A program made the translations under genes and the position numbers. The notes under the pieces were generated by a model, which saw only the letters and a program-made list of their open reading frames with translations, had not been told where the DNA came from and searched no databases. From contig JARGOG010000020.1 in NCBI GenBank assembly GCA_029212785.1, positions 1-64,000 of the forward strand: a stretch of DNA of 64,000 nucleotides. The letters are read 5' to 3'. This stretch comes from Thalassobaculaceae bacterium (GTDB lineage: Bacteria; Pseudomonadota; Alphaproteobacteria; Thalassobaculales; Thalassobaculaceae). This document shows positions 40,693-63,173 of this stretch, piece after piece. Numbering within the stretch: the first letter of the stretch is position 1; each line of letters opens with the position of its first letter.

Positions 40693-41601
40693 TCACGATG
40701 CGGCGCTGCATTCCAACCACGCCTCGAGTGCCGCCGCGAACGGCGCCAGGCTCTTATATCCGCGCATTTCATCCGGCATTGTCCGCAGCGAACCCAGCAT
40801 CGCGGCGGCCAGGTCGGGCCGATCCGCGATAACCGCGATCGGATCGACCACGGTCTTGATTCCGAAGACCAGCACGCCGGTCTTCGGCAACCGCCGGAAG
40901 GTTTGACGCTCGATTCGGATATGGACGCGCTTGGCGATCAGCTCCGGGGTGATCGAGGGGTCGACCGTCTTTCGACCGTGACCGGCCGGCTGGAACAGCG
41001 CCGGATCATCCAGAATCGACCAATTCAACCGCATATAGAGCTGCCCCTCCTCGATCCCGGCGAAAAACCGCTCCACAGGTCTGTTCAGGCGCGCATTGAA
41101 GCCGGGAACCGGGTCGTGGATCGCGGCCATCGGTCGACCGATCTTGTCCGCCAGCCGCCAGCGCGCCGGAAAACAGAGCGACGCCGCGATCAGCCGATGC
41201 CCGTCCTCGCCCGGCTGCATCAGGCAGAGATCCTCCTGCACCAGGCGGCCGGCCAGATCCAGCGGTGCTTCGGAGAAAGCGGCCCGGTCCAGCCGCTCCC
41301 CGTTCCACAGCGTTCGGACGGCCTCTCCATCCACAACCGCGATATCCGGGTGCCGCCGCACGACATGCGCCAGCACGACGTCGAGACATTCCTGCTGAGC
41401 CGGGCGACTCTCCGGCAGGGCGGCGAACACCTCTCCATGGCGCCCGGCGAGCAACCGTGCCTTCTCTGCCATATGGGCGGCGAAGTGCCGATCGACATCG
41501 ATCCAGTCCGCCATCGCGATCTGCCGAATGCCGAGCGTCAGTTGGAACCGCCCTTTCTCATAGGGCGCGAAACGCGGCGATGTCGTCGTTGACGTGGTCA
41601 C
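40693..41601 (-). CDS. DUF3445 protein (heme-dependent oxidative N-demethylase family)
   Basis: 302 residues from GTG 41601, which overlaps the upstream stop (GTGA). It fits the DUF3445/HODM pattern: YEKGRFQLTLGIRQIAMADWIDVDRHF at the start, PVPGFNARLNRPVERFFAGI in the middle and LYMRLNWSILDDPALF next. Family members bind heme and can demethylate secondary amines using O2. It is translationally coupled to the end of the glycan-donor operon, which is unexpected. It might act on a methylamino group of the glycan or simply share the transcript. Confidence 0.82.
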   Translation of the reverse strand: MTTSTTTSPRFAPYEKGRFQLTLGIRQIAMADWIDVDRHFAAHMAEKARLLAGRHGEVFAALPESRPAQQECLDVVLAHVVRRHPDIAVVDGEAVRTLWNGERLDRAAFSEAPLDLAGRLVQEDLCLMQPGEDGHRLIAASLCFPARWRLADKIGRPMAAIHDPVPGFNARLNRPVERFFAGIEEGQLYMRLNWSILDDPALFQPAGHGRKTVDPSITPELIAKRVHIRIERQTFRRLPKTGVLVFGIKTVVDPIAVIADRPDLAAAMLGSLRTMPDEMRGYKSLAPFAAALEAWLECSAAS

Positions 41602-43724
41602 GGCAGCCAGTGCGGCGTCCCGAACGCGACGTCGTTGAAGCCGTGGCGCTGGACGGTGCGGATGACAAGGCGCATGCCCGGAGATACGGCCGCCGGTCGT
41701 AGAACCGCCCAGGACCAGGTTGGCGCCACCGGGCGCTTCAACTCGATCTCATCCAGGGTTCCGCCGTCGGCATCCAGCAACTTGAGCGTCGTGCCGAATG
41801 GCCAGCGCTCGGTATGGATCGGCACGAGGATTCCCCGTGCGGATCCGGGATCACCCAGCGCCACCGAGGCGGCGAAGCGGCGGTCTGCTAGGCCGAAAGA
41901 CCCGAAAACCGGCGCCGCTCCGACCGGCACGTCCGCAGCCCCGACACCGCCGCTCAACGCGTGACCTTCGAAGCTCCAGGCACCCGAGTTCGCCGGCCGC
42001 GATGCTGCGGGAAGGTCCTTCAGATACCGGTCGGGTCCGGCCGCAACGGTGCCCGGCAGACGGCAACGGCTGCCATCGGCGAACACGCCCTCAACGGTGA
42101 CGACATCCACCGGCGGTTCGGGTGCCTCGCCGAACGCCTGGAAGCCACGCGACAGAAACCCCGGATCCGGAACCGGGACGCGGTCCATCCTCGGCTCCAG
42201 ACCGGCCCCCCAGGCGACCACCCTGCCCTCTAGAGAGCGGGCAACGACCCAGAGCGGGCTGACCCCGCTATCGGCCTTGATCAGCCATGCCGCGAAGGTG
42301 ACGCCGGTCACCGGGTCGATCTGCAGCCGGTCGGCGCTGCCGTCACAGAGCGGCGCCACGACGGCTGGGCCTTCCGCCAGCGCCGCTTCGGGCGGCTGGA
42401 AGCGCTCAAGCTCGGAGAACGGGCCGAGCCCCGCGGCCTGCATTGCGTCCAGGACGCTCTGCGGGCGCGGCGGCCAGTGCGGATAAATATGGCGCAACAT
42501 ATCCGGCCGGTAGCCGCCGGCCAGGTGACTGACGATGGTCAGGTTGGACAGGTCCCGCGCCGCCAGCCGGTCACGCAGCCCCCGCACTCCGTGAACATCC
42601 CCCGGGACGAGCAGCAGAAGGGTCGAGACGGCCAGCGCCAACGATACGACGCGCTGGCGCTGGAGCCGTAACAGAACGTCGAAGCCAAGCAGCCCCGCCG
42701 TCACCAGGAAAACGATTGACGGCGTGGTGTAGCGCGACGAGTTCGCGGCCCCGAGGCCGAGATGCAGTCGCCCCAGCGCCGTCGCCAGCGCCGCCGCCAG
42801 GACAAAGGCGCAGACCGCGAACAACGCCATTCGGGTCGCCGACGTCCGTGCTGGCCGCAGCAGCCCGTAGACGCCCCCGGCGACGATGCAAGCGATGGCG
42901 GTGAGACCGACAAGTTCCTGCCCCAACGTGCCGATTTCGCCGATCGACGATGTCAGATAGCGCGCCACGAATCGCAGGATCGTTCCGACACCGGCTTCGG
43001 CGGTCAATCCACCGCCTCCGCCCGGCCGATGCATGAACGCCGTGACTTCGATCGCCATGACCGCACATCCGACCGCCGCCACGACCAGCGACCAGGCGAT
43101 CGGCAGCCGACGCCAGAACGCGAAAACGATGAGCAGCGGCCAGACGGCCAGGCCGTTGAACATGCTGTATGTCGAGCCAAGCGCCGCGATCAATGCGCCG
43201 ACAACCGACATTCCGAGCAGGACCGGCCGCTCGTCACGCGCCGGCGCCCAGGCGACCAGGGCGAAGGCGAGCGTGGCGAACAGCCAGACCTGAATGAACT
43301 GTACCTGGAAGCCCTGGAGGAGGTTCTCGTACTGTACCGGCGAGGCCATGGCGGCGGCGGCGATCAAGAACGCCACGGCGACCGCCCGCCGCGGGTGTCC
43401 GAGTCCCCGGAACAGTGCCGCCAGCAATGCCGCGTGCACCAGGCCCGATACGAAGATCACGGTCAGCAAAACCGTCTGTCGGGCGTCCACCAAAGCGACA
43501 TCGGCCAGGAACCAGAGCTTCGGCACCACCAGGCGATGCTCGTTGTGCCATTGGTAAAGCTGGGAAAATCCGTAACCGGTGAAGCCGCCCGCTTCGAGAA
43601 ACTGATGATAGAAGTCGATGATGTCTCCGGTCGGAGTCGAGGTCGACAGGAACACCGGGTAGGCGGCACCAAAGGCGATCGTCGCCACGGCCAGGACGAG
43701 CGACCCCGCCACCACCGCCTTCAC
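41598..43724 (-). CDS. polytopic membrane protein, candidate GT-C-type glycosyltransferase
   Basis: 708 residues from GTG 43724 (GTGA overlap with the GtrA stop). Residues 1-375 hold about ten membrane spans. The first periplasmic loop has acidic residues Asp34 and Asp37 (TPTGDIIDFYHQ) and a Glu in QWHNEHR, as in GT-C enzymes that use a lipid-linked sugar. Residues 375-708 form a soluble periplasmic region whose last 150 residues look like a beta-sandwich (FAASVALGDPG...LVIRTVQRHGFNDVAFG), possibly carbohydrate-binding. No exact family is recognised. The neighbours suggest it is the transferase using a polyprenyl-phospho-pentose. Confidence 0.65.
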   Translation of the reverse strand: MKAVVAGSLVLAVATIAFGAAYPVFLSTSTPTGDIIDFYHQFLEAGGFTGYGFSQLYQWHNEHRLVVPKLWFLADVALVDARQTVLLTVIFVSGLVHAALLAALFRGLGHPRRAVAVAFLIAAAAMASPVQYENLLQGFQVQFIQVWLFATLAFALVAWAPARDERPVLLGMSVVGALIAALGSTYSMFNGLAVWPLLIVFAFWRRLPIAWSLVVAAVGCAVMAIEVTAFMHRPGGGGGLTAEAGVGTILRFVARYLTSSIGEIGTLGQELVGLTAIACIVAGGVYGLLRPARTSATRMALFAVCAFVLAAALATALGRLHLGLGAANSSRYTTPSIVFLVTAGLLGFDVLLRLQRQRVVSLALAVSTLLLLVPGDVHGVRGLRDRLAARDLSNLTIVSHLAGGYRPDMLRHIYPHWPPRPQSVLDAMQAAGLGPFSELERFQPPEAALAEGPAVVAPLCDGSADRLQIDPVTGVTFAAWLIKADSGVSPLWVVARSLEGRVVAWGAGLEPRMDRVPVPDPGFLSRGFQAFGEAPEPPVDVVTVEGVFADGSRCRLPGTVAAGPDRYLKDLPAASRPANSGAWSFEGHALSGGVGAADVPVGAAPVFGSFGLADRRFAASVALGDPGSARGILVPIHTERWPFGTTLKLLDADGGTLDEIELKRPVAPTWSWAVLRPAAVSPGMRLVIRTVQRHGFNDVAFGTPHWLP

Positions 43725-44182
43725 CGGCCGTCTCCCTCGACACCGCGCTCCGCCGCGTGCGGCAAGGCCGTCGGTGTCCGCGCGGCGAAGGAGAAGTGCC
43801 GGTGGCCGAGATAACTCGTCACCGCCGGAATCACGACGCCGATCATGTGGGCGACGTCGTCGGCGTGCCAGGTGAAGTCGACCGCCGGGAACAGGTAGCG
43901 GGCCAGCCCCACGCTGACCAGCCAGACCTGGACCAGCGCCACCGCGTTGACGATGGCGAAGCGGAAGAACTCGTCCCGCGCGCTGCGCCCCGATGCCTCG
44001 AACACGAACAGCTTGGCGAGCACGTAGGCCGTCGTCATGCCGACCAGATACGCGACCACCACCGCCGCCTCGAACGGCATGACGACATTAAACAGCCAGC
44101 GCGACAGCACATTGGCACCGGCGGCAATGCCGCCGGTCACCAGGAACCGGCCGAATTCCCCAAGAACGATGGACCTCGCCAC
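43721..44182 (-). CDS. GtrA-family membrane protein
   Basis: 153 residues from GTG 44182. Four membrane spans in the GtrA layout, with the first-span signature FGRFLVTGGIAAGANVLSRWLF and a conserved LAKLFVFE between spans 2 and 3. GtrA proteins are linked to moving polyprenyl-phosphate-linked sugars across the inner membrane, or to recruiting transferases. In mycobacteria a GtrA protein (Rv3789) is encoded next to DprE1/DprE2. Here it is in the same operon as DprE1/E2-like genes, which supports a role in flipping the lipid-linked sugar. Confidence 0.9.
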   Translation of the reverse strand: MARSIVLGEFGRFLVTGGIAAGANVLSRWLFNVVMPFEAAVVVAYLVGMTTAYVLAKLFVFEASGRSARDEFFRFAIVNAVALVQVWLVSVGLARYLFPAVDFTWHADDVAHMIGVVIPAVTSYLGHRHFSFAARTPTALPHAAERGVEGDGR

Positions 44183-44193
44183 GCCCGCTCCTC

Positions 44194-45489
44194 CTAACCC
44201 GCGACCGATGCCGGGATCGCCGCCACCATCTCCTCGGCGACGCGAGCACTCTCGCTGATCCCGCGATCCTCCGGGTAATAGAAGCAGGTATCGGCGATCT
44301 GCAGCCCACGGATCGGCGTCTGGATCGGCGGGATCTTGGCGAGGAAACCGGGTTCGCAGACCGGCTGGGCATAGCGCAGCCGCCCGACGGTCCAGGCCTT
44401 CAGGTCGTCGTCGGTAACCTGCGGGTTCAGATGCTTCAGACAGGCCATCGACTCCTCGATGAACGCCGCGTCGTCGCGCCCGAACTTCGGATGGGTTGTC
44501 GGCATGTAGAACGGCACATACACGACCGTGTCCTCGACGGGGCGCAGGTTAGAGAACTGGATGATCCCCGGAATCTCGACATCCTTGTCATTGATATTGA
44601 CCCAGAAATGCTCGGTCACCGACGTCTTGAGACGCAGCAGAACACAGACTACCCCAATATTCACGATCGCGTCGTACCGGGCTTTCCAGTCATCGGGCAG
44701 CGCCGGGACCAGGGACGAGACGAACGGGGTCGGCATGGTCGAGATCACCGCGTCGGCCGGCACTAGGCCCGCATCCGTGCGCACACCGACCACCTTGCCA
44801 TCGGCGGCAACGATCTCGCGCGCCGGCGTGGACAGACGGATTACCCCGCCACGCGCCTCGATCGCCTCGACCAGGGCGGTGACGAGAGTCTCGGTCCCGC
44901 CCTCGATATAGCCGAGTTCCTCCTGCATCAGTGACCGCCGCGAGGTGCCGACACGCTTGATCCGGGTCCAGATCCAGGCGGCGGAGACGTTATCGGCGTA
45001 TTCGAAGAACTTCAGCTCGAACAGCCGGCGCCAAAGCACGTCATAGGCCCGCTTGCCGGCCCCCTTCTCGATCCAGTCCTTGGCCGAGACGGCCTCCAGG
45101 TCCGACCAACCGCGGCGCTTGGTCGACAGGAACATCTGCAGGCCGTAGCGGAACTTCGAGATCCAGTCGATCTTCGGGAAGGTCAGCAGCGCGATCGGGT
45201 CGCCCCAGCGGTACATCCTGCCATCGACGAAATAACCCATGGACGTTGCGGTCCAGCGCATCTTGTCGCCGATACCGAGCCGGTCCATCAGCCGGAAGGT
45301 CGGCTGGTCCGCCTTGCAGACGAAGTGATAGAAACGTTCGATCGACAACCCGTCCAGATCCAGATGGGCCGCCATGCCGCCGGGCACGGAATCCGCCTCG
45401 TAGACAGTGACCTGATGCCCAGCCTCCAGGGCATGATAAGCAGCGGCAAGCCCCATGGCGCCGGCGCCGATGATCGCGACATTGGCCAT
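44194..45489 (-). CDS. FAD-dependent oxidoreductase (amine-oxidase/protoporphyrinogen-oxidase fold)
   Basis: 431 residues from ATG 45489. The N-terminal dinucleotide-binding motif IIGAGAMGLAAAY is followed by YEADSVPGGMAAH. The C-terminal FAD motif region reads RGLQIADTCFYYPEDRGISESARVAEEM. The overall pattern matches the flavin amine oxidase / UDP-galactopyranose-mutase-like group often found in polysaccharide loci. It could modify a sugar nucleotide or lipid-linked sugar. It lies between the epimerase and GtrA genes (10-11 base gaps). Substrate unknown. Confidence 0.85.
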   Translation of the reverse strand: MANVAIIGAGAMGLAAAYHALEAGHQVTVYEADSVPGGMAAHLDLDGLSIERFYHFVCKADQPTFRLMDRLGIGDKMRWTATSMGYFVDGRMYRWGDPIALLTFPKIDWISKFRYGLQMFLSTKRRGWSDLEAVSAKDWIEKGAGKRAYDVLWRRLFELKFFEYADNVSAAWIWTRIKRVGTSRRSLMQEELGYIEGGTETLVTALVEAIEARGGVIRLSTPAREIVAADGKVVGVRTDAGLVPADAVISTMPTPFVSSLVPALPDDWKARYDAIVNIGVVCVLLRLKTSVTEHFWVNINDKDVEIPGIIQFSNLRPVEDTVVYVPFYMPTTHPKFGRDDAAFIEESMACLKHLNPQVTDDDLKAWTVGRLRYAQPVCEPGFLAKIPPIQTPIRGLQIADTCFYYPEDRGISESARVAEEMVAAIPASVAG

Positions 45490-45499
45490 CGCCGCCTCC

Positions 45500-46429
45500 T
45501 CAGAAGTCCAGGATCACGCCCGAGTATTTCGGGTCGCGGAAGGTGGCGGTCAGCGCTTCGTCCAACGGCGTCGAACGCACGTCGAAGAGCCCCGGCCAGT
45601 CGATCACCTCGAAGCTGTCCGGCGTTACCAGGGCTTCGAGTTGCGTGGTGGTGAACGGCGGATCCCGATCGAACACCGCATAGACCCTGAGCAGCAGCCA
45701 GAACAAACTGTAGGGGATGTGGACGATGGGCGTCTTCGCCCCGCTCGCCTTGCGGACCGCCTTGATCAGGTCGACATAGTCGATCTTCTCCTGCCCGGAA
45801 ATGTTCCACGCACCTTCGCGCCGGCCATCGAGACAGGCGAGCACGATGTCGGAGAAGTCGCCGCCATAGAGCGGCTGACGCATGTATCGACCACTGCCCG
45901 GGATCGGGAAGACCGGCGCTTTCCGCATGAACCGGGCGAGCCAGCCAAGGTGTTTGCGGTCGAACCAGCCGTACATCAGCGTGGGGCGCAGGATCGAATG
46001 GGCGATCCCGCTCGCCGCCACCAGTGCTTCCTGCGTTTTCTTGCTCTCGGTGTAGAAGTCGACCGCCTTGGAGTTCACCACAGAGGAGGAGACGTGCACC
46101 AGATACGGCACGCTCTCGGCCTTCATGGCGTCCAGAACCAGCCGCGTGGCCCGCACGTTGTTGGCCTCGAAGGTGTCCGGGTCGAGGCCGCCGATCTGGG
46201 CATGCAACTGGATCACCGCGTCCGCGCCCTTGAACGCCCGCGTCCAGTCACCCGGTTGGGCCAGATCCGCTTCCATCACCTCGATACCCGGATGCAATCC
46301 GGCCAGCACCGACGTGTTCTTCGGATGCTTGTCGATGGCGACGATCTGCAGGTCGGCACGGTCGGCGATGCGCGCGATCAGGTTCTGGCCGACGAGTCCG
46401 GCCGCCCCGGTGATGACGATACGCGCCAT
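45500..46429 (-). CDS. NAD-dependent epimerase/dehydratase (extended SDR)
   Basis: 309 residues from ATG 46429. NAD-binding ITGAAGLVGQNL at the N-terminus, Ser in HVSSSVVNS and the catalytic Tyr-x3-Lys in YTESKK near 128. The C-terminal part (RYMRQPLYGGDFSDIVLACL) fits extended SDRs acting on nucleotide sugars. It probably supplies or modifies a sugar for the same glycan. Gaps of 4 and 10 bases to its neighbours place it in the operon. Confidence 0.88.
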   Translation of the reverse strand: MARIVITGAAGLVGQNLIARIADRADLQIVAIDKHPKNTSVLAGLHPGIEVMEADLAQPGDWTRAFKGADAVIQLHAQIGGLDPDTFEANNVRATRLVLDAMKAESVPYLVHVSSSVVNSKAVDFYTESKKTQEALVAASGIAHSILRPTLMYGWFDRKHLGWLARFMRKAPVFPIPGSGRYMRQPLYGGDFSDIVLACLDGRREGAWNISGQEKIDYVDLIKAVRKASGAKTPIVHIPYSLFWLLLRVYAVFDRDPPFTTTQLEALVTPDSFEVIDWPGLFDVRSTPLDEALTATFRDPKYSGVILDF

Positions 46430-46433
46430 GGGA

Positions 46434-47183
46434 TCAGATCTTCATCTTATTGAAGATGGGTCGCGGCAGATGACGGATGACCAGCATCACGAAACGCCAG
46501 AACCAGCGGGTGTAGATTTCCGGCCTGCGCTTCCGGACGGCCTTCTCGATATCCTCGGCGACCTGATCCGGCGTCGCCCAGAGCGGACCGTCCCGCCCGT
46601 CGATATGGGCCGTCATCGGTGTGGCGACAAAACCTGGCTTGACGCAGATCACGGTGATCTCGGTGCCGGCGAAACGATGGGCCATGCCCTCCAGATAAGT
46701 CGACAACCCGGCCTTGGCGGCGCCGTAGGCGTAGTTGGTTCGCCGCCCCCGGTCGCCCGCCACCGAGGAGATGGCGACCAGTGTCCCGGCACCCGCCAAC
46801 TCGAACGCGCGGGCGGCCAGTTCGCACCAGACCACGGCACTGGTGAAATTGGCCTGCAGCCCTCGGGCGAGCGCGGCGGTATCGCTCTGCGCTTCCTGCT
46901 GGTCGCCGAGAATGCCGTAGGCGAGGAACACCGTGTCGATCCCGCCAAGCGTTCCGGTCCAGCGCGAGAACCGGGTGTCGGCGTCCGCGGTATCGGCAAG
47001 GTCTTCGGTGGAGGTTCCCACCGTCGCCCCGCGCGCCGTCAGGTCGGCGGCGATCGCGGCGAGCTTGTCGCCGTCGCGTGCCACCAGCAGGAACGAGTCC
47101 CCCGCGGCGGCTCTCAGACGGCACCAGCGTTCGGCAATCGCCGAGGTGGCGCCCAGAACCAGAATTCGGTTTATCGCGGCCAT
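46434..47183 (-). CDS. dprE2: DprE2-like SDR ketoreductase
   Basis: 249 residues from ATG 47183. SDR with a cofactor motif LGATSAIAERWC (rather than TGxxxGIG) and catalytic Ser-Tyr-Lys in ISSVAGDRGRRTNYAYGAAKAG. The pattern SSVAG-x-R-x-R-(S/T)-N-x-x-YG-x-x-K and the C-terminal KPGFVATPMTAH are typical of decaprenylphospho-2-keto-ribose reductase (DprE2). Encoded directly downstream of a DprE1-like gene (6-base gap), it would complete the 2'-epimerisation of polyprenyl-phospho-ribose to arabinose. The symbol rests on motif memory and pairing. Confidence 0.82.
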   Translation of the reverse strand: MAAINRILVLGATSAIAERWCRLRAAAGDSFLLVARDGDKLAAIAADLTARGATVGTSTEDLADTADADTRFSRWTGTLGGIDTVFLAYGILGDQQEAQSDTAALARGLQANFTSAVVWCELAARAFELAGAGTLVAISSVAGDRGRRTNYAYGAAKAGLSTYLEGMAHRFAGTEITVICVKPGFVATPMTAHIDGRDGPLWATPDQVAEDIEKAVRKRRPEIYTRWFWRFVMLVIRHLPRPIFNKMKI

Positions 47184-47189
47184 TTCGAC

Positions 47190-48518
47190 TTAGGCCTCCT
47201 CGGTCATGCGGCGCCAGAAACTCGACATCAGGATCGGATCGCGCGCCGCTTCCAGCTCCGTCCAGCGCGGAAAACCGGCCCGGAACATCGCCTGCGGCAG
47301 GCGTCCGTCCTTGGCGGGGTATAGACGCCCGCCGGCCTCCGCCACAACCCGGTCGAGCCGGGACAGCAGCGACAGGGTGTCCGCCCCCCGGTTCGCGAAG
47401 TCGAGCGCCAGGGTCGCGCCGGACATCGGGAAGGACAGCACGCCCGGCGACGGCGCGTCGCCGAATGTCTTGAGCACGGCGAGAAACGAGGCATCCCCGC
47501 TGGCCGCGACCGTGTCCAGCAGAACGCGCACTGCCTCCCGCATATGCGCGGTCGGGATGGCGCATTGCCACTGGTAGAAGCCGCGCGATCCGTACATCCG
47601 GTTCCAGTCGCGCAGCCGGTCGAGCGGGTAGAAGAATGGGTCGTAGTGCTGCCGGCCATGGAATCGGGCGCCCGGTCGCGCCCGGTACAAGCGGTTGAAG
47701 GCGCCGACGGTCAGACTGTTCAGCAACCCACCGGGCGCGTCCAGAGGCAGACGCGGCCCACCGCTGCGATGCGGATTCAGGCCACCGTTCCCAGCCCATC
47801 TCCCGCGCGAGAAAATACCGCGCCCGAGGCGCTCGCCACGCGCCAAGGTATCGACCCAGGCGACCGTGAACGGCCAGGAGTCCGAGCGCTCCGACAGCGA
47901 GAAGAAAGCGTCGAGGTCATCGACCGGAATGTTCTCCACCTCCAGCATCGCCGAGGCGATCCGTTCAAGCCGGACCTCGACCCAGGTGATCACCCCGGTG
48001 AGTCCGAAACCGCCGATGGTGAGCGCGAACAGATCCGCGTTCTCGTCCGGCGCGCATTCGATCTCGCCACGATCGCTCCGCCACAGACCGAAACGGGTGA
48101 CATGGCTGCCGAAGGTTCCGGCGAGATGATGGTTCTTGCCGTGAACGTCGTTGGCGACGGCGCCGCCCAGGGTGACGAACTTGGTCCCCGGGGTAACCGG
48201 GACGAACCATCCGGCCGGCACCGTGACCCGCAGCAGGGCATCCAGCGACAGGCCGGCATCGGCCCGCACGATCCCGGCCGCGCGGTCGAACGCGATCAGC
48301 CGATCGAGCCCGGTCGTCCGCACCAGCCCGCCGCCGAGATTGAGACCGCTGTCGCCATAGGAGCGCCCCAGACCATGGGCGAGCGTCGAGGCGCCTGCCT
48401 CCGCCGTCTCACGGATCGCCGCGCCGACTCCATTGCGGGTCGCCGGGTCGCTGACAAAATGCCGCCCCCGATGCACCCGCCCCCAGGCGAGAACGTTGAG
48501 GTCCTCGCGCGCCGTCAT
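47190..48518 (-). CDS. dprE1: DprE1-like FAD-dependent polyprenyl-phospho-ribose 2-oxidase
   Basis: 442 residues from ATG 48518, overlapping the previous stop (ATGA). A VAO-type FAD domain with LGRSYGDSGLN near 50 and PGTKFVTLGGAVANDVHGKNHH near 115. The C-terminal cap ends with GGRLYPAKDGRLPQAMF, which matches the YTAKDSR segment of mycobacterial DprE1; Lys403 would be the catalytic lysine. At the place of the drug-targeted Cys387 of M. tuberculosis this protein has Ala371 (in TLALDF), by memory alignment. DprE1 with DprE2 converts decaprenyl-phospho-ribose to the arabinose form. Confidence 0.87.
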   Translation of the reverse strand: MTAREDLNVLAWGRVHRGRHFVSDPATRNGVGAAIRETAEAGASTLAHGLGRSYGDSGLNLGGGLVRTTGLDRLIAFDRAAGIVRADAGLSLDALLRVTVPAGWFVPVTPGTKFVTLGGAVANDVHGKNHHLAGTFGSHVTRFGLWRSDRGEIECAPDENADLFALTIGGFGLTGVITWVEVRLERIASAMLEVENIPVDDLDAFFSLSERSDSWPFTVAWVDTLARGERLGRGIFSRGRWAGNGGLNPHRSGGPRLPLDAPGGLLNSLTVGAFNRLYRARPGARFHGRQHYDPFFYPLDRLRDWNRMYGSRGFYQWQCAIPTAHMREAVRVLLDTVAASGDASFLAVLKTFGDAPSPGVLSFPMSGATLALDFANRGADTLSLLSRLDRVVAEAGGRLYPAKDGRLPQAMFRAGFPRWTELEAARDPILMSSFWRRMTEEA

Positions 48519-49939
48519 GCAGCCACCAGGATGGCAAGGAAGGCGATCGCGCCGAGCATCAGGCTTGGCGGGTCCTTGAGCGCGAACACGACCGGGTCGT
48601 CATGCACGTCGCCGCGGCGCGCCAACAGCCAGACCCGGGGCAGCCAGAATCCGAGCGTCGCCGGGACAACCCAGAGCCATTCCGGATCCGCCAGCCGCCT
48701 GGCGTGGGCCGGTTCGATGGCGAGATAGATCATGAAGATCACCACCGAGGCCATGCTGGTGGTGATGCCGAAGGCCTCCACGAACCCGCTGTCTCCGGCC
48801 CGGTAGCCGCGGCCCGGAATGCTGTCCAGTCCGCGCGCCTCCAGCCCCCTCACCTCGACCAGCCGCTTCACCAGCGCCAGGCTGGTGAACAGGAACACGG
48901 AAAACCCGAGGAGCCAGACCGGCGTGCCGCCATCGACCAGTGTGTGGCCGGCGAACAGACGCAGCGTGAACAGCGCACCGAGGACGACGACGTCGACCAC
49001 GGCCATCGACTTCACGCCGAAGGAATACGACAGCGTCAGCACCAGATAGACCAGCAGACAGCCGAACACGCCCCACCCGGCCATCTCCGCCAGGAGCAGA
49101 CCGATCACCACCAGGGCGGGCGACGCGACCAGCCCGACGGCCACCGGAAGGCGCCCCGAGGCCAGCGCCCGGAGGCTCTTGGTCGGATGCCCGCGATCGG
49201 CGGCAAGGTCGAGCAGGTCGTTCAGCAGGTAGGTTCCGCTTGCCGCCAAAGAGAATCCGAGGAAGGCGGCGATCGCCGCGGCCACGATGTCCGGATCGGT
49301 ATAGGTGCTGGTCAGCAGCAACGGCAGGAAGATCAGCCCGTTCTTCGCCCATTGGTGCAGGCGCATACCCGACCGCAAGCCCTGGAAAGTGTTGAGCGGT
49401 ATCCCGAACGCCGCTTCGACCGGCGCCAGGCGCTCGATCGTCGCGCGACGCGGCAGGGCCGCGTTCACCGGTACCGCGCCGGTGGCCGCTTTCCAGACGG
49501 CGTCGTCGACGGTGCTGTCGCCGGCATAGACGAACCCGTCCGGATGGCGCGTGACGAGGGCCGCGGCCTTGGCATCGCCCTTCAGGTTGGTGATGCCGTC
49601 GCTGCCCTCGACATGGTCGAACAAGTCGCCAAATCGGGCGGCGACCTTGGCGGCCAGCGCCTGGTCGGAGGCCGAGACCAGTTCGATGCGCCGCCCGTTG
49701 GATTTCTCCGCCCGCAGATAGTCGACCAGATCCGCCGTCACCGGCAGGCTGTCGACCTCAAGCTCATTCTCGGCCACCGCCGCCAACCGCCGTTTCAGCG
49801 CGGAGCGACCGGCAGCCACCCAGAACGGCAGCAGAAAGATGATCCAGGGGCGACGGCGCAGGGCGACAAGCAACGACTCGAACAACAAGTCCGTTCGCAA
49901 CAACGTGCCATCAAGATCGACGCAGAGCGGCGGCTTCAT
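48515..49939 (-). CDS. HAD phosphatase-UbiA prenyltransferase fusion (polyprenyl-phospho-ribose synthase-like)
   Basis: 474 residues from ATG 49939 (a TTG six codons earlier is less likely). Residues 1-190 are a HAD-type hydrolase: DLDGTLLRTD near 8, LVSASD near 95 and YAGDSTVDDAVW near 145. Residues 195-474 are a UbiA-fold membrane domain with about eight spans and the motif NDLLDLAADRGHPTKSLRALASGRLP. This matches NDxxDxxxDRxHPxKxxRPIAxG of phosphoribosyl-polyprenyl-phosphate synthase (Rv3806c type, NoeC). The fusion could make polyprenyl-phospho-5-phosphoribose and remove the 5-phosphate. It is first in the eight-gene operon. Confidence 0.87.
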   Translation of the reverse strand: MKPPLCVDLDGTLLRTDLLFESLLVALRRRPWIIFLLPFWVAAGRSALKRRLAAVAENELEVDSLPVTADLVDYLRAEKSNGRRIELVSASDQALAAKVAARFGDLFDHVEGSDGITNLKGDAKAAALVTRHPDGFVYAGDSTVDDAVWKAATGAVPVNAALPRRATIERLAPVEAAFGIPLNTFQGLRSGMRLHQWAKNGLIFLPLLLTSTYTDPDIVAAAIAAFLGFSLAASGTYLLNDLLDLAADRGHPTKSLRALASGRLPVAVGLVASPALVVIGLLLAEMAGWGVFGCLLVYLVLTLSYSFGVKSMAVVDVVVLGALFTLRLFAGHTLVDGGTPVWLLGFSVFLFTSLALVKRLVEVRGLEARGLDSIPGRGYRAGDSGFVEAFGITTSMASVVIFMIYLAIEPAHARRLADPEWLWVVPATLGFWLPRVWLLARRGDVHDDPVVFALKDPPSLMLGAIAFLAILVAA

Positions 49940-50015
49940 GCACTTCACGGCCCGCAAATGCCGGTCCGCCTCCTAGTGTCAGCGCGGTATTCGAGGAGCT
50001 TTCTAGAGCACCGAG

Positions 50016-53284: not shown

Positions 53285-54268
53285 GTGTCGAAGACGCTGG
53301 TCATCCAGCCCCTGCCGGGTATCGGCGACATGGTCTGGCACCTGCCGCACCTGAAGGCGATCGCCGAGGCGGCGCCGGACGGCAAGGTCACGGTGCTGAC
53401 CAAGCGGCGCTCGGCGGCCGATCAGATGCTGGCGGGAGTGCCGTGGGTGTCCGACGTCCATTGGCTGGAGCGGGCCCAAGGCGACGAGCCGGCCGGGCGC
53501 CACGACGGCGCGCTCGGCGTATTCCGGCTCGCCACTGACCTGAAGCGTTTGAACGTCGACACTGTGTGGATCCTGCATCGGTCCTGGCGCTACGCGGCGG
53601 CGGCCCGGCTAGCCGGTATCCCGACGCGGATCGGATACCGGGTTCTGCCGGATGGCGGCCGCGACCTGCATCAGGCGGAGAAGGCCACCACCCTGCTCCG
53701 CGCCCATGGCATCCAGGTCGACCCGACCCCGCGCCTGACCCCGCCTGCGACGGCGAAGAAAGAGGTCACCCGGCTCTATGGCGACCTGCCCCGGCCCTGG
53801 CTGGTGCTGGGCATCGGCGCATCGGAGCCGTTCAAACGGTGGCCCGAGGCGAATTTCTCAGCCCTGGCCCGCGCGTTCACCGATCGCACCGGCGGCAGCG
53901 TCATCCTGATCGGCGGCACGGCCGAGAAGGAGAGCGCCGAGCGCATCCTGCAGAACGCCCGGGGCAACGTGGTGTTGGCGATCAACCGGCCGATCGGACT
54001 GGCGGCGGCGCTGGCGGCGGCGGCGGAGGCCTTTCTCGGCAATGACAGCGGCATGCTGAACCTGGCGGCGGCCACGGAGGCCAGGGTGATCGGCCTGTTC
54101 GGCGGCTCTCCGCCGCTCACCCTTTATCCGAACCTTGAAGCCCTGGAGCCACCGGGCGGTGCGGAATACCGGGTGGATCGCATGGCCGAGGTCGAGGTCG
54201 AGGTCGCCATGAACGCGCTGAGCCGAGCCCTCGACAGCACCCCGCCGAAGCCGTTTCCCAAACGCTGA
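53285..54268 (+). CDS. glycosyltransferase family 9 (heptosyltransferase-like)
   Basis: 327 residues from GTG 53285 (GGGAG upstream). GT9 pattern: LVIQPLPGIGDMVWHLPHLKAI at the N-terminus, GIGASEPFKRWPEANFSALAR near 180, then NDSGMLNLAAATEARVIGLFGGSPP near 257, the nucleotide-sugar-binding part. Family members add heptose or other sugars to lipopolysaccharide core from the cytoplasmic face. A second GT9 gene lies about 0.6 kb to the right on the opposite strand, so this is probably a small LPS-core locus. Confidence 0.9.
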   Translation: MSKTLVIQPLPGIGDMVWHLPHLKAIAEAAPDGKVTVLTKRRSAADQMLAGVPWVSDVHWLERAQGDEPAGRHDGALGVFRLATDLKRLNVDTVWILHRSWRYAAAARLAGIPTRIGYRVLPDGGRDLHQAEKATTLLRAHGIQVDPTPRLTPPATAKKEVTRLYGDLPRPWLVLGIGASEPFKRWPEANFSALARAFTDRTGGSVILIGGTAEKESAERILQNARGNVVLAINRPIGLAAALAAAAEAFLGNDSGMLNLAAATEARVIGLFGGSPPLTLYPNLEALEPPGGAEYRVDRMAEVEVEVAMNALSRALDSTPPKPFPKR

Positions 54269-54293
54269 ACGAAGCCCGTCGCCGTCCTCTTCT

Positions 54294-54404
54294 GTCTTCC
54301 CGGCACCACGCCGGGATCCAGAACCAGCGCAGCCGGGGCGTCGGAAGGCATGTCCCACCGTTCCGGCGACCCCGCTCTGGATCGCGGGTCAGGCCCGGGA
54401 AGAC
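54294..54404. repeat. large palindromic intergenic element
   Basis: GTCTTCCCGG (54294-54303) pairs with CCGGGAAGAC (54395-54404). Inside it, GATCCAGA (54315-54322) pairs with TCTGGATC (54376-54383). The short inner hairpin CCCGGcaccacgCCGGG also forms in the left arm. This double-arm layout with CCGGGATCCAG matches the dispersed palindromic elements common between genes in alphaproteobacteria (by memory). It sits between two convergent genes and may act as a two-way transcription stop. Only one copy was noticed in the window. Confidence 0.72.
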
Positions 54405-54440
54405 GCCGGGAGGAGAGGGTTCGACAAACCCCTCTCTCCC

Positions 54441-54827
54441 TCACACAGTCCGCGCGACGACCCGAATCTCGATGATCGTATCGGCGCTGGCGAAGCCCGA
54501 GACTTCGATGGCGGTCCAGGCCGGATAGGGTTCGCCGACAAACTCGGACCGCACGGCGCGAAACAGATCCAGGTGGACGCGCAGCCCGATGTGATAGGTG
54601 GTCATTTCCACCACCGCGAAGAAGTCGAGCCCGGCTTCCCGGAGCACCATCTCGACCTGGCCAAAAGCGGTGCGGAACTGGGTCTCGGGATCGGCGGAGC
54701 AGCGACCGTCGGCACCCGTTCCGGTAAAGCCGGTCAGGAACACGTGGTCCCCCGAAATCAGGCCGGGCGACATCTTCCAGTCGTAATAGCTCTTCAGCGC
54801 CGCCGGGATGACCGCCTTATGATCCAT
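54441..54827 (-). CDS. RidA/YjgF-family protein
   Basis: 128 residues from ATG 54827 (GAGGG upstream). RidA fold: SPGLISGDHVFLTGFTGTGADG near 20, PETQFRTAFGQVEMVLREAGLDF near 50 and a C-terminal AWTAIEVSGFASADTIIEIRVVA. The usual catalytic Arg of RidA near the end is present (IEIRVVA). Family members hydrolyse reactive enamines/imines or related compounds. It follows the GT9 gene by 8 bases, so it may be co-transcribed without a functional link. Confidence 0.88.
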   Translation of the reverse strand: MDHKAVIPAALKSYYDWKMSPGLISGDHVFLTGFTGTGADGRCSADPETQFRTAFGQVEMVLREAGLDFFAVVEMTTYHIGLRVHLDLFRAVRSEFVGEPYPAWTAIEVSGFASADTIIEIRVVARTV

Positions 54828-54835
54828 GACACCCT

Positions 54836-55789
54836 CTATCCCTTGTCCGCCAACAGTCGCCGCGCCGCCGCCCCGACATCGGCGACCGACAAGCCGCACA
54901 TTAACGCGCCAGGCTCTCGCCCAACTTCCGCAGAGCGTGCCAGCAGCGCCTCGGCACTTTCCGTCGTCCGCACCCACGCGGTGACCGCCCCGGCCGGGGC
55001 GTAGTGGGCGTCCTTGCTCGGCCCGAACAGGCCGAGGGTCGGCGCACCGGACGCCGCCGAGAGGTGCATCAGGCCGCTGTCATTGGCGACCACCAGCCGG
55101 CACCGCGCGAAGACCGCCGCCAGAGCCATCAGCGGCGCGCGGTCGACCAGATCGATCAGCCGATCGGCCGGGACCGCCGCCAGGACCGGGGCGGCCAGTT
55201 CCCGCTCGCCCGGCCCGCCGGCAACCAGCACCCGCGCGTCCGGCAGCGGGCCGTCCTGCGCCGTCAGGCGGGCGACCAACTCGGCGAACCGCTCCGCCGG
55301 CCAGGCCTTGGGCGGCCAGTTCGCCGTCGGCGCCACTGCCAGCAGCGGCCGCGGATCGTCGCCGAGGATGTCTTGCGCGCGCCGCCGGTCCGCCTCGCCG
55401 ATCCACAGCCGCGGCATCAACGGCAGGTCCAGACCGAGGCTCGCCGCCATCTGCTCCAGCCGGTGCCCGTCGCCGCGCGCGGTGCGGTAGATCCGGCGCT
55501 CGCCCGCCAGCAGCGTCCAGGCCAGCGCCGACCCGCGCATGTCGACCACCCGGTCCCAGCGGGTGCCGGCCACCTCGCTCCAAAGGCGCAGCCAGTGGCG
55601 CCCCGCCTTCTCCTTGCGCCAGGGAATGACCCGCTCGACCTGGGGCGCGCCCGCGAACAGGGCGGCCGCTACCGGCCCGCAGGCGACGGTCACCTGGGCC
55701 TGCGGATGTTCGTCGAGCATCCGCGCCAGCACCGCCGTCGACAGAACGGCATCGCCCAGGCGATTGGAGGTGATGAAAAGTGCGCGCAT
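54836..55789 (-). CDS. glycosyltransferase family 9 (heptosyltransferase-like)
   Basis: 317 residues from ATG 55789. GT9 pattern: LFITSNRLGDAVLSTAVLARM at the start, LAVAPTANWPPKAWPAERFAELVARL near 168 and VANDSGLMHLSAASGAPTLGLFGPSKDAHYAPAG near 245. Acts on LPS core or another surface sugar. It is upstream of the RidA gene. It differs from the other GT9 in its C-terminal sequence, so the two likely add different sugars. Confidence 0.9.
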   Translation of the reverse strand: MRALFITSNRLGDAVLSTAVLARMLDEHPQAQVTVACGPVAAALFAGAPQVERVIPWRKEKAGRHWLRLWSEVAGTRWDRVVDMRGSALAWTLLAGERRIYRTARGDGHRLEQMAASLGLDLPLMPRLWIGEADRRRAQDILGDDPRPLLAVAPTANWPPKAWPAERFAELVARLTAQDGPLPDARVLVAGGPGERELAAPVLAAVPADRLIDLVDRAPLMALAAVFARCRLVVANDSGLMHLSAASGAPTLGLFGPSKDAHYAPAGAVTAWVRTTESAEALLARSAEVGREPGALMCGLSVADVGAAARRLLADKG

Positions 55790-59780: not shown

Positions 59781-61082
59781 ATGAATGAGCAGCTCACTCC
59801 GGAGAAGATCCGGCGCCTCGTCGTCACCCGCGCCAACGATGCCAGGGTCATGCACGCCTGGGCCGGGACGCGGATGGCGGAGGCGCCGCTGGAGGCGCTG
59901 GCCTGGTCGCGACGCGCACGGACGATCGATCCGTTCGCGCCGCCGCCACGGCATCGTGAAGCCCTTGCGCTCTGGTGTCTCGGTCGGACCAACGAGGCGG
60001 ACCGGGCGGGATTGCCCGGCGTTCTGCTCGACCCGAGCGACTGGCATGCCTGGATCAATGTCGGCAACGTGAAAAAGCGGCTCGGCGACACGATGCTTGC
60101 CCTGCGCATCTGCGACTGGGCGCGCGCGACCGGCGCGCCGTTCCACATGTCCGGCATGAACGCCGGCGTCCTGCGCCTGAGGCGCGGCGACTATGCGGCC
60201 GGCTGGCCGCTGTACCGCGCGCGCCATCGAACCCTCGGCGTCGATCCGACGACGATCTGGCCCGAGCTGCCGGAATGGGGCGGCAAGCCGATCCGAGGCG
60301 GGCTGCGCCTCGTCACCGAGCAGGGCATCGGCGACGCGATCATGTTCATGACCCTGATCGAGGCGGTCCGCGACCGGGTTGGCCCGATCACCCTGCTGGT
60401 GACCCATCGCTTGCGGGGCCTGGTGCAGCGCAGCTTTCCCGACATCCAGGTCATTGCGCCCGACGTTAGCGGCGCCCTCGCAGAACTCCCCCAGGCCGAG
60501 GCTTGGATCTGCGCCGGCGACGTGCCGGCGGCCATCGGCCTTTTCACCACCGGGTCCGCCCGCCCACGGCCTTATCTCAAGGCCGATCCCAGGCGACGAC
60601 AGCGGATCCGCGATCGGTTGCAGCGCCGGTATCCGGGCAAGCGGCTGGTCGGCATCACTTGGACCAGCCTGGCCGACGACGGCTGGCGGCGGACCGTCGC
60701 GCCAAGCCTCTGGCATCCGATCTCCGACATCGAAGACATCGTCCTGGTGTCGCTGCAGTACAAAGCGGGCAAAGGTGATCTTGCCGCCTTCGGAGACCGG
60801 CTCGCCATCGACCATGGGATCGAACCGTTTCAAGATCTTGACGGCCTCGCCGCTCTGGTCGCGGCGATGGACGTGGTCGTGTCGCCGCCCAACAACACCA
60901 TCCATTTCGCGGGCGCGCTTGGCGTACCCTGCCATGTCATGCTGCCGGTCGACCCGGATTGGCGCTGGGGGGAGGACGGGTGCGGCTGCCAGTGGTATGA
61001 AAACGTCAGACTTCACCGCCAACAACGCATCGGAGACTGGGCGCCAGTCGTCGACAGCGTCGTTCAGGACCTGCGTCGATAG
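59781..61082 (+). CDS. TPR-like protein with glycosyltransferase domain (1)
   Basis: 433 residues from ATG 59781. Residues 1-150 are helical with TPR-like spacing (WINVGNVKKRLGDTMLALRICDWA). Residues 175-433 form a GT9/GT41-like glycosyltransferase-type domain: RLVTEQGIGDAIMFMTLIEAV near 177, KRLVGITWTSLADDGW near 290, DLDGLAALVAAMDVVVSPPNNTIHFAGALGVP near 352. The same layout, with clear similarity, is encoded by the next gene. Proteins of this type glycosylate proteins such as flagellin in some alphaproteobacteria, but the acceptor here is unknown. Confidence 0.82.
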   Translation: MNEQLTPEKIRRLVVTRANDARVMHAWAGTRMAEAPLEALAWSRRARTIDPFAPPPRHREALALWCLGRTNEADRAGLPGVLLDPSDWHAWINVGNVKKRLGDTMLALRICDWARATGAPFHMSGMNAGVLRLRRGDYAAGWPLYRARHRTLGVDPTTIWPELPEWGGKPIRGGLRLVTEQGIGDAIMFMTLIEAVRDRVGPITLLVTHRLRGLVQRSFPDIQVIAPDVSGALAELPQAEAWICAGDVPAAIGLFTTGSARPRPYLKADPRRRQRIRDRLQRRYPGKRLVGITWTSLADDGWRRTVAPSLWHPISDIEDIVLVSLQYKAGKGDLAAFGDRLAIDHGIEPFQDLDGLAALVAAMDVVVSPPNNTIHFAGALGVPCHVMLPVDPDWRWGEDGCGCQWYENVRLHRQQRIGDWAPVVDSVVQDLRR

Positions 61083-61097
61083 AGGCGGCCCGTATCC

Positions 61098-63173
61098 GTG
61101 AGCCAACACTCCCTCAATCTCCTCAACGAAGGCATCCGTCACCAGAAGGCGGGATTCCGCAGCAGGGCGGCGAAGCTCTATGGCAAGGTCCCCCAAGGCG
61201 ACCAGTATCACGCCGACGCGCTCAACCTGCTCGGAACGATCCAGTTCGAGGAAGGCCGGCCCATCGATGCCGCCCGGCTGATCGAACAGGCGATCAGGAT
61301 CAACCCGGGCAACGCCGCCGCCTGGGGCAATCTCGGCGGTGTGGCCAAGCACATGACGCGCCCGGACGTCGCCATCCCATGCTATCGGCGGGCCATCATG
61401 CTGGGCCCGGACCGCCCCGACAGCCTGATCGGACTGTCGATGACGGAGAGCGGGCGCAACCGGGCCATCGCCCTGCGCCGCCGCCTCACCCTCGCGCCGC
61501 TTGATATCGACGGCCATATCGAGATCGGCAACGACCTGTCCGAGGCCGAGGCGAAGGCCGAGGCCGCCGCCTGCTTCCGCCGGGTGCAGGTGCTCTTTCC
61601 CGCCTCGCCGGCCGGCGCCTTCAACCTCGGCAATGCCCTCCGGGACAGGGGCGATTCAGTCGGCGCGCAGCACTGCTACCACCGGGCCATGGCGATCAAC
61701 CCGGCCAATCCGAACATCCAGAATAATCGCGGATTGCTGTCTTTCACCCGCGGCGAGTGGGCGGATGCGGAGCGGTATTTCAGGCGGGCCCTCAATCTGG
61801 CGGCCAACCATTCTCCCGCCAATTGGAATCTGGCCCGCACCCTGCAGAAACTTGCCCGACCGGACGAGGCGATCCGACCCTTCATGCGCGGTCTGGTCGC
61901 CGATCCGTCCAGCATCTCGGCCTATTGCGAGATCGCCGGACTGCTGGAGCAGGAACGTTGGGCCGAGCGGGCCCTGGCGTTGAACCCCTATGCCTCGGAA
62001 CCCTACAACCGGCTGGCGCTGCTTTCGACCAAGGATCCGTCCCGCGCAAGGGTCCTGTACCGTTTGCGCCAGGGTGCCTGCGTGCGGCCGAACGATCCCG
62101 ATGCCTGGTACAATATCGGCGTCGAGCTGGGGCGTGTCGGCGATGCGGCGTCGGCGTCGAAATTTGGCCGATACGCCACCCATATCCGCGACAATCATGC
62201 CCTCGCCCACCTCAACACCGCCCTCGCCTTGCTGGTACAGGAGCGGTTCGAGGAAGGTTGGGAGGAGCATTGCCGACGGCTGGACTCACCGGACGCCGCT
62301 CCCTTCCTGCGATACTTCCAGATTCCGGAATGGACCGGCCAGGACATCGACGGAAAGAAACTGCTGGTCTGGGGAGAACAGGGGATCGGCGACGAAGTGC
62401 AGTTCCTCACTTTGGCGCCGTATCTGATCCGCCAGGGCGCCCGGCTCACGGTGCTGACCGAACCGCGGATCCGGCCGATCCTGCGCCGCAGTCTGCCGGG
62501 GGTAGCGGTCCCCGACGTCTCAAACCCGTCGGCGGCGATCGAGGACTCCCACGGTTGTGACCTGCAGATCGCACTTGGCGACCTGCCGCACCGCCTCAAG
62601 CTGTTCTGTGGTGGCGAGGCGATGCCCGAACCGTGGATCGTGCCAGACGCGGACAGGGTTGCGACACTCAGGGCCGATCTGCAGAAACGCCACCCCGGCG
62701 AGAAACTTGTCGGCATCACCTGGCGTTCGGTCGCACCGAAGACCGGCGGCCGGCGGTCAATTCCTATCGGCCTGTGGCGGGAGATCGCCGCCACCCCCGG
62801 CGTCGCCCTCGTCTCCCTGCAATACGGATTGAAGCAGGACGATCTCGACGCCTTCGCCGCGGAAATCGACCGCCCGATCGACCACAGCCACGACATAGAA
62901 CCGATCCTCGACCTGGATGGTCTCGCCGCCTTGGTCGCCGCGGTCGATCTGGTCCTGTGTCCGGCCAACAACACCGTGCATTTCGCCGGTGCCCTGGAGA
63001 AGGAATGCTGGACCCTGCTGCCGACCAGGCCGGACTGGCGTTGGGGGCTGACCCGGACCGACTCACTCTGGTATCCGAACACCCGGGTGTTCCGTCAGGC
63101 GGATGACGACGACTGGGCCTCGGTCATGAGCCATGTCGCCGCCGAATTGGGAGCTTGGGCGACGCGCGGCTAG
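61098..63173 (+). CDS. TPR-repeat protein with glycosyltransferase domain (2)
   Basis: 691 residues from GTG 61098. About ten TPR-type repeats (residues 1-380; for example DALNLLGTIQFEEGRPIDAARLIEQAIRINPGNAAAWGNLG) lead to a GT9/GT41-like domain (about 410-690): LLVWGEQGIGDEVQFLTLAPYL near 425, LVGITWRSVAPKTGGRRSI near 537, DLDGLAALVAAVDLVLCPANNTVHFAGALEKE near 605. Its second half is clearly homologous to the second half of the previous protein. It resembles protein O-glycosyltransferases with TPR acceptors; no acceptor gene is seen nearby. Confidence 0.85.
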   Translation: MSQHSLNLLNEGIRHQKAGFRSRAAKLYGKVPQGDQYHADALNLLGTIQFEEGRPIDAARLIEQAIRINPGNAAAWGNLGGVAKHMTRPDVAIPCYRRAIMLGPDRPDSLIGLSMTESGRNRAIALRRRLTLAPLDIDGHIEIGNDLSEAEAKAEAAACFRRVQVLFPASPAGAFNLGNALRDRGDSVGAQHCYHRAMAINPANPNIQNNRGLLSFTRGEWADAERYFRRALNLAANHSPANWNLARTLQKLARPDEAIRPFMRGLVADPSSISAYCEIAGLLEQERWAERALALNPYASEPYNRLALLSTKDPSRARVLYRLRQGACVRPNDPDAWYNIGVELGRVGDAASASKFGRYATHIRDNHALAHLNTALALLVQERFEEGWEEHCRRLDSPDAAPFLRYFQIPEWTGQDIDGKKLLVWGEQGIGDEVQFLTLAPYLIRQGARLTVLTEPRIRPILRRSLPGVAVPDVSNPSAAIEDSHGCDLQIALGDLPHRLKLFCGGEAMPEPWIVPDADRVATLRADLQKRHPGEKLVGITWRSVAPKTGGRRSIPIGLWREIAATPGVALVSLQYGLKQDDLDAFAAEIDRPIDHSHDIEPILDLDGLAALVAAVDLVLCPANNTVHFAGALEKECWTLLPTRPDWRWGLTRTDSLWYPNTRVFRQADDDDWASVMSHVAAELGAWATRG

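What the first reader, a model, noticed from the sequence alone, without database searches (positions are those of the whole stretch)
41598..43724. Unassigned large membrane protein as candidate arabinosyltransferase-like GT-C enzyme
About ten spans, with Asp34/Asp37 and an NEHR segment in the first periplasmic loop, then a periplasmic region of about 330 residues ending in a beta-sandwich-like part. Mycobacterial Emb and Aft arabinosyltransferases also combine a GT-C core with periplasmic carbohydrate-binding parts. Translational coupling to GtrA puts it at the transfer step. I recognise no exact family.
Basis: inference. Interest (0 to 1): 0.62.

Follow-up and report, generated by a model that had tools for sequence, protein, structure and literature searches.

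The report
Undescribed GT-C enzyme transferring D-arabinofuranose (predicted)
This alphaproteobacterium carries a membrane enzyme of a family that no library searched here describes; it is predicted to attach the rare sugar D-arabinofuranose (known mainly from the tuberculosis cell wall) to a surface glycan, using a lipid-bound donor made by the genes next to it.

Summary
The 708-aa gene (41598-43724, minus strand) overlaps the GtrA gene by 4 nt and follows an operon HAD-UbiA / DprE1 / DprE2 / epimerase / FAD oxidoreductase / GtrA. The AlphaFold2 model (pLDDT 77.6) has 11 TM helices, juxtamembrane helices between TM1 and TM2 with Asp34 at the tip of the first, and two periplasmic beta domains. 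Every solved structure in the structural top 50 that matches the membrane part is a GT-C protein (ALG3, EmbB/EmbC, AglB, PIGU, AftA, AftD); the last domain is a CBM-like jelly roll like that of EmbC. In 28 diverse homologues His63, Arg319, Asp34, Arg331 and Tyr332 are invariant or nearly so, all in predicted periplasmic loops; Asp37 is not conserved. Within the bacterial family, gene and DprE1 coincide perfectly (9 have both, 26 neither), and homologues adjoin DprE1 genes in seven further genera and a Rhodobacterales plasmid. No Pfam or NCBIfam model covers the protein. Best reading: a new sequence family of GT-C pentofuranosyltransferase in a three-component system of the kind described in 2024 (GT136). 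D-Araf is the likeliest sugar, but the cassette holds two further conserved enzymes that could alter it. The acceptor is unknown. Nothing was tested biochemically.

The parts
41598..43724 (-). GT-C glycosyltransferase candidate, 708 aa (subject of the finding)
   Evidence: ORF; homologues; AlphaFold2 model m61dc151f5044 and structural matches
43476..43646 (-). residues 27-83: periplasmic loop 1 with juxtamembrane helices, Asp34 at the tip of helix 33-44, and H60-N-E-H-R64
   Evidence: model secondary structure; conservation; topology
42720..42782 (-). residues 315-335: G318-R319 ... R331-Y332 motif before TM10, predicted to face the periplasm
   Evidence: invariant or nearly so in 28 members; topology
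42045..42353 (-). residues 458-560: first periplasmic beta domain with conserved C460/C554
41601..42008 (-). residues 573-708: CBM-like jelly-roll domain
   Evidence: matches CBMs and EmbC/EmbA C-terminal domains, Z 8-10
43721..44182 (-). GtrA-family protein, candidate flippase of the lipid-linked sugar
   Evidence: PF04138, 56.1 bits, cut-off 26.1; 4-nt overlap with the GT-C gene
44194..45489 (-). FAD-dependent oxidoreductase (PRK07233), role unknown
   Evidence: NF005560 515 bits, cut-off 252; retained in the cassette
45500..46429 (-). NAD-dependent extended SDR epimerase with TGxxGxxG and YxxxK
   Evidence: PF01370; motifs; retained in the cassette
46434..47183 (-). DprE2-like SDR (2'-keto reductase)
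   Evidence: NF053786 173.7 bits, below its curated cut-off of 250
47190..48518 (-). DprE1-like FAD oxidase
   Evidence: NF053785 359.7 bits, below its curated cut-off of 500
48515..49957 (-). HAD phosphatase - UbiA fusion: polyprenyl-phosphate phosphoribosyltransferase plus 5'-phosphatase
   Evidence: NF006088 539 bits, cut-off 351; decaprenyl-phosphate phosphoribosyltransferase models also match

Best explanation
It is the transfer enzyme of a periplasmic pentofuranosylation system. [quoted passage not shown] DprE1/DprE2 oxidise and re-reduce C2, giving a polyprenyl-phosphate-linked D-arabinofuranose (possibly altered further by the epimerase and the flavoprotein). GtrA brings the lipid-linked sugar to the periplasmic leaflet. 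The 708-aa protein, a GT-CA-fold enzyme, then binds the donor with conserved residues of its periplasmic face (His63, Arg319, Arg331, Tyr332), uses Asp34 as catalytic base (if inverting) or nucleophile (if retaining), and transfers the pentofuranose to an acceptor glycan held by its C-terminal beta domains. Shown here: operon, predicted fold, conservation, topology, co-occurrence. Inferred by homology to characterised systems: each chemical step. Unknown: exact sugar, linkage and acceptor (an O-antigen or other exported polysaccharide is likeliest).
For: Operon order. Model with 11 TM and juxtamembrane helices, Asp34 at the tip; in the top-50 structural list the rows matching the membrane part are all GT-C proteins: ALG3 Z 13.8, EmbB 12.9 (413 residues), AglB 12.7, EmbC 11.6 (449 residues), PIGU 11.4, AftA 10.1, AftD 9.7. 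C-terminal domain matches CBMs and EmbC (Z 8.3-8.5, 16-17% id). In 28 diverse members His63 28/28, Arg319 28/28, Asp34 27/28 (E in one), Arg331 27/28, Tyr332 27/28, all in predicted periplasmic loops. In the bacterial family 9 of 9 gene-positive genomes have DprE1 and 26 of 26 gene-negative ones lack it. Homologues lie beside DprE1 genes in seven other genera and follow GtrA in the same order on a Rhodobacteraceae plasmid. Precedent: PMC11127046 showed this pathway type biochemically, with a GT-C enzyme needing D31, E34, H106 and R349; PMC12041299 places the essential Asp of GT-CA enzymes at the tip of JM helix 1.
Against: No sequence match to any characterised GT-C family. The Z values are in the range that the tool's notes call ambiguous for helical proteins. 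DprE1 and DprE2 score below the curated equivalog cut-offs. Homologues in G122, G423, G902, G999, G822 and G236 lack both DprE1 and HAD-UbiA, and G093 lacks DprE1, so the wider superfamily is not tied to this sugar. Other DprE1 cassettes carry different, non-homologous membrane proteins in the same slot.
Confidence: 0.78

Rival explanations
1. Same enzyme type, but the sugar is not plain D-Araf: the conserved epimerase and FAD oxidoreductase convert the lipid-linked pentofuranose further (for example C3 inversion to a lyxo form, or another modification) before GtrA flips it.
For: Epimerase, FAD oxidoreductase and GtrA occur together or not at all beside HAD-UbiA/DprE1/DprE2 in 8 sampled loci outside the family, and all 7 plasmid records with this epimerase also have the FAD oxidoreductase and HAD-UbiA. 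The epimerase has the TGxxGxxG and YxxxK motifs that PMC11127046 reports for ORF13, which turns the ribo donor into xylo.
Against: No direct evidence of product. PMC11127046 notes that lyxofuranose is in no solved polysaccharide. The two enzymes could act on the acceptor or the lipid instead.
Confidence: 0.22
2. It is a divergent member of CAZy family GT136 rather than a separate family (compatible with the main mechanism; it concerns classification).
For: Same layout as the GT136 founder ORF12 (11 TM, helical domain after TM1, C-terminal CBM), similar order of key residues (D31/E34/Y35, H106, H174, R349/Y350 against D34/D37/F38, H63, Q140, R331/Y332), same HAD-UbiA type of donor enzyme (PMC11127046).
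Confidence: 0.2
3. It is a GT-C enzyme for another polyprenyl-linked sugar (hexose) and its place beside the DprE operon is incidental.
For: Several distant homologues occur in genomes without DprE1 or HAD-UbiA.
Against: Perfect coincidence with DprE1 within the family, conserved order, and repeated linkage in other orders. No GT2-type donor synthase lies in the operon.
Confidence: 0.07
4. It is an O-antigen polymerase/ligase (Wzy/WaaL type) or a transporter rather than a glycosyltransferase acting on single sugars.
For: Multi-TM protein in a glycan operon.
Against: The structural matches to the membrane part are GT-C proteins, with the JM helices and Asp after TM1; the operon already has a flippase candidate and no polymer assembly genes.
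Confidence: 0.03

Closest known systems
GT136 founder ORF12 of Citrobacter youngae O1 and the three-component pentofuranose pathway (Kelly et al. 2024, PMC11127046)
   Same: HAD-UbiA-type donor synthase, dedicated GT-C enzyme with 11 TM helices, Asp after TM1, C-terminal CBM; DprE1/DprE2 predicted there for Araf systems
   Different: Flippase here is GtrA rather than MATE; two extra enzymes in the cassette; shorter loop 1; two beta domains; sequence relation untested here
Mycobacterial arabinosyltransferases EmbA/B/C
   Same: GT-C core plus C-terminal CBM aligned over 413-449 residues of the model; lipid-linked D-Araf donor
   Different: No detectable sequence relation; about 1,030-1,090 residues in the solved chains against 708
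AftA, AftB and AftD
   Same: GT-CA fold, Asp at tip of JM helix 1 (PMC12041299), and, from my own knowledge, an aftA locus beside Rv3789 (GtrA-like), dprE1 and dprE2
   Different: Separate sequence families; AftB is retaining; the mechanism here is unknown
TfpW of Pseudomonas (pilin arabinosylation)
   Same: Gram-negative use of a lipid-linked D-Araf donor by a membrane transferase (own knowledge; TfpW is named in PMC11841053, not compared here)
   Different: Acceptor there is the pilin; no sequence comparison made

Membership tests
GT-CA fold glycosyltransferase | juxtamembrane helices between TM1 and TM2 | tested here: met
   helices 33-44, 53-62 and 66-79 between TM1 (2-26) and TM2 (84-106) in the model
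GT-CA fold glycosyltransferase | conserved acidic residue at the tip of JM helix 1 | tested here: met
   Asp34 at the start of helix 33-44; D in 27, E in 1 of 28 members
GT-CA fold glycosyltransferase | structural match of the membrane core to solved GT-C enzymes | tested here: met
   membrane-part rows in the top 50 are all GT-C, Z 8.8-13.8; moderate Z for a helical protein
GT-CA fold glycosyltransferase | glycosyl transfer from a polyprenyl-phosphate donor | not testable with these tools
   needs a biochemical assay
CAZy GT136 | sequence homology to ORF12 | not tested
   ORF12 sequence was not found in the collections searched; supplements could not be read
CAZy GT136 | 11 TM helices, helical domain after TM1, C-terminal CBM | tested here: met
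   against the description in PMC11127046
CAZy GT136 | catalytic set D31, E34, Y35, H106, R349, Y350 | tested here: inconclusive
   D34, H63, R331, Y332 fit by order and side of the membrane; D37/F38 not conserved; no alignment possible
Emb and Aft arabinosyltransferases (sequence families) | match to their Pfam models or PDB sequences | tested here: not met
   no Pfam or NCBIfam match, no PDB sequence match up to E 10
Three-component pentofuranose system | polyprenyl phosphoribose synthase with phosphoribose phosphatase | tested here: met
   HAD-UbiA fusion, NF006088 539 bits over cut-off 351
Three-component pentofuranose system | dedicated flippase | tested here: met
   GtrA family by PF04138; the prototype uses a MATE protein instead; flipping itself not testable
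Three-component pentofuranose system | DprE1/DprE2 where the sugar is Araf | tested here: inconclusive
   NF053785 and NF053786 match with 360 and 174 bits (E 3e-107, 5e-51) but below the curated cut-offs of 500 and 250

The most novel reading that the evidence does not exclude
The seven-gene cassette makes and transfers a pentofuranose that is not plain D-Araf: DprE1/DprE2 act together with a cassette-specific epimerase and flavoprotein to give a doubly altered lipid-linked sugar (such as D-lyxofuranose or an oxidised or deoxy pentofuranose), which this new GT-C family installs on a surface glycan.
Probability: 0.2. Interest if true: 0.75.

Novelty: new variant of a known kind. Interest (0 to 1): 0.52.

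Why it matters
D-arabinofuranose is best known from the mycobacterial cell wall, where its transferases are drug targets. A GT-C family missing from Pfam and NCBIfam yet linked to the DprE pathway in several proteobacterial lineages gives new enzymes for comparing how such transferases recognise donor and acceptor, and gives a likely function to proteins now annotated as hypothetical. The cassette's two unexplained enzymes also make a specific prediction about an as yet unseen sugar testable.

Tried and rejected
Pfam, NCBIfam, PHROGs and PDB sequence searches with single proteins and profiles gave nothing for the GT-C protein. tblastn of the protein in plasmids gave no match; the plasmid homologue appeared only through the epimerase search and the profile. 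A viral-contig scan found no relative, so phage-borne seroconversion by this family is not seen. I scanned HAD-UbiA neighbourhoods for a GT136 residue fingerprint and found no usable GT136 sequence; a HAD-UbiA search in phages gave one weak hit. Foldseek alone is uninformative for the full model (best rows are chance-like, with AftA at rank 8); the VIA-align second look was used instead. Asp37 as a catalytic residue was rejected (15 of 28, mostly close relatives). Polymerase/ligase and transporter readings were rejected on fold. An exclusive link of the whole superfamily to D-Araf was rejected.

Full report
The thing itself. The gene lies at 41598-43724 on the minus strand, starts with GTG and encodes 708 residues. 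Its start overlaps the stop of the GtrA gene (GTGA), and the next gene downstream (HODM-like, 40693-41601) overlaps its stop. Reading along the minus strand the operon is HAD-UbiA, DprE1, DprE2, epimerase, FAD oxidoreductase, GtrA, this gene. Identities come from Pfam and NCBIfam: HAD-UbiA is over its curated cut-off (539 bits, cut-off 351); DprE1 and DprE2 match the specific models with 360 and 174 bits, below the equivalog cut-offs of 500 and 250, so they are relatives of the mycobacterial enzymes rather than certified equivalogs. The subject itself matches no Pfam, NCBIfam or PDB sequence.

Fold. An AlphaFold2 model from eight aligned sequences has mean pLDDT 77.6 and pTM 0.69. It shows TM1 (2-26), juxtamembrane helices 33-44 and 53-79, ten further TM helices up to residue 381, then two beta domains. 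A structural second look lists, for the membrane part, only GT-C proteins among its 50 best entries: ALG3 (Z 13.8, 305 residues, 5.4 A), EmbB (12.9, 413), AglB (12.7, 329), EmbC (11.6, 449), PIGU (11.4), AftA (10.1, 324) and AftD (9.7, 304). These Z values are moderate for a helical protein, but no unrelated helical bundle is in the list, and Emb matches extend into the C-terminal domain. Folded alone (pLDDT 85.5) the C-terminal part again gives a CBM-type jelly roll at 573-708, with EmbC and EmbA domains among the matches at Z 8.3-8.9 and 13-17% identity. The first beta domain (458-560) has two cysteines conserved in most members, which fits a periplasmic disulfide; its fold was barely tested.

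Catalytic residues. In 28 members spanning several orders His63 and Arg319 are invariant; Asp34, Arg331, Tyr332, Pro31 and Gly191 are kept in 27, Glu62 and Arg64 in 26, Asn61 in 25. Asp37 is kept in only 15, mostly close relatives. With the positive-inside rule all these positions fall on or next to the outer side: loop 1 (Asp34, HNEHR), the loop before TM4 (Asn134, Gln140, Gln142), before TM6 (Gly191) and before TM10 (Arg319 to Tyr332). Asp34 starts the first juxtamembrane helix, where GT-CA enzymes have their essential Asp (PMC12041299). The GT136 founder needs D31, E34, H106 and R349, and Y350 for most of its activity (PMC11127046); D34, H63, R331 and Y332 fit that order, though no alignment could be made.

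Distribution and link to D-arabinofuranose. In 35 genomes of the same bacterial family the gene and a DprE1 gene are both present in 9 and both absent in 26; by simple counting the chance of this by shuffling is 1 in about 70 million, ignoring shared ancestry. The operon order is the same in the loci read in full, one of them with a tandem duplicate of the GT-C gene. Donor genes there are 57-92% identical to the window's, the GT-C gene only 34-67%, which suggests diversification on the acceptor side. Farther homologues sit beside HAD-UbiA/DprE1/DprE2 in G617 and G525, G420, G980, G748 and G1086, the last with tandem copies, and within 7 kb in G816; and in the order of the window on plasmid pSC52_3 of a Rhodobacteraceae bacterium, annotated hypothetical (profile E 4e-101). 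In wider samples 11 of 18 homologue-bearing genomes have DprE1, against 59 of 398 in a phylum sample (Fisher p about 1e-5, approximate because the samples differ and overlap). Six homologue-bearing genomes lack both DprE1 and HAD-UbiA, so distant members may use other donors.

Cassette. The epimerase, FAD oxidoreductase and GtrA appear together or not at all near DprE1 in the sampled loci, and all seven plasmid records with the epimerase also carry the FAD oxidoreductase and HAD-UbiA. Other cassettes have different membrane proteins, not detected by the family profile, in or near the transferase slot (L098, L101, L105, L189). This looks like a conserved donor module with exchangeable transferases, as in O-antigen glucosylation systems, but only the family studied here was tested as GT-C.

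Mechanism. Donor synthesis, flipping and transfer are inferred from characterised systems (PMC11127046 and the mycobacterial pathway). What is shown here is gene content, order, predicted fold, conserved residues, topology and co-occurrence. Whether the transfer inverts or retains, which linkage is made and to what acceptor is open. The two extra enzymes leave open that the final sugar is not plain D-Araf.

Verdict. It is a new sequence family of a known kind of enzyme in a recently recognised kind of pathway. The literature library held only open-licence papers, so an earlier description elsewhere cannot be excluded.

Noticed in passing
window 40693-41601 (-): A gene with the haem-dependent oxidative N-demethylase alpha-subunit-like domain (PF11927) overlaps the end of the GT-C gene and stays next to it in the family members with enough sequence; its link to glycan synthesis is unexplained.
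   Followed up: partly
window 44194-46429 (-): Epimerase and FAD oxidoreductase (PRK07233) form an all-or-none module with GtrA beside HAD-UbiA/DprE1/DprE2 in alpha- and betaproteobacteria; no role is assigned in the papers read.
   Followed up: partly
L098:4517-6895, L105:1429-3867, L189:320-2755, L101:6781-9498: In other DprE cassettes large membrane proteins of other families (one type with a DPSW...FT(F/L/Y)GP motif) sit in or near the slot of the GT-C gene; candidates for further undescribed pentofuranosyltransferases.
   Followed up: no
L017:8001-12247 and L171:7630-12004: Tandem copies of the GT-C gene: two in Thalassobaculum fulvum, about three in G1086 beside a full donor cassette; possibly linkage-specific paralogues.
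   Followed up: no
L031:34-2405 (G122): Broken pieces of a family member, with stops in frame, lie next to a gene that looks like a Wzm-type polysaccharide ABC transporter permease, hinting at a polysaccharide acceptor.
   Followed up: no
L124-L130 (rhizobial and other plasmids): HAD-UbiA genes on symbiotic and other plasmids (e.g. pNGR234a) lie with SMR/GtrA-type proteins and varied uncharacterised membrane proteins, so pentofuranose systems look common on plasmids.
   Followed up: partly
window 53285-55789 and 59781-63173: Several genes that by eye look like GT9/heptosyltransferase-type glycosyltransferases, some with TPR repeats; not searched.
   Followed up: no
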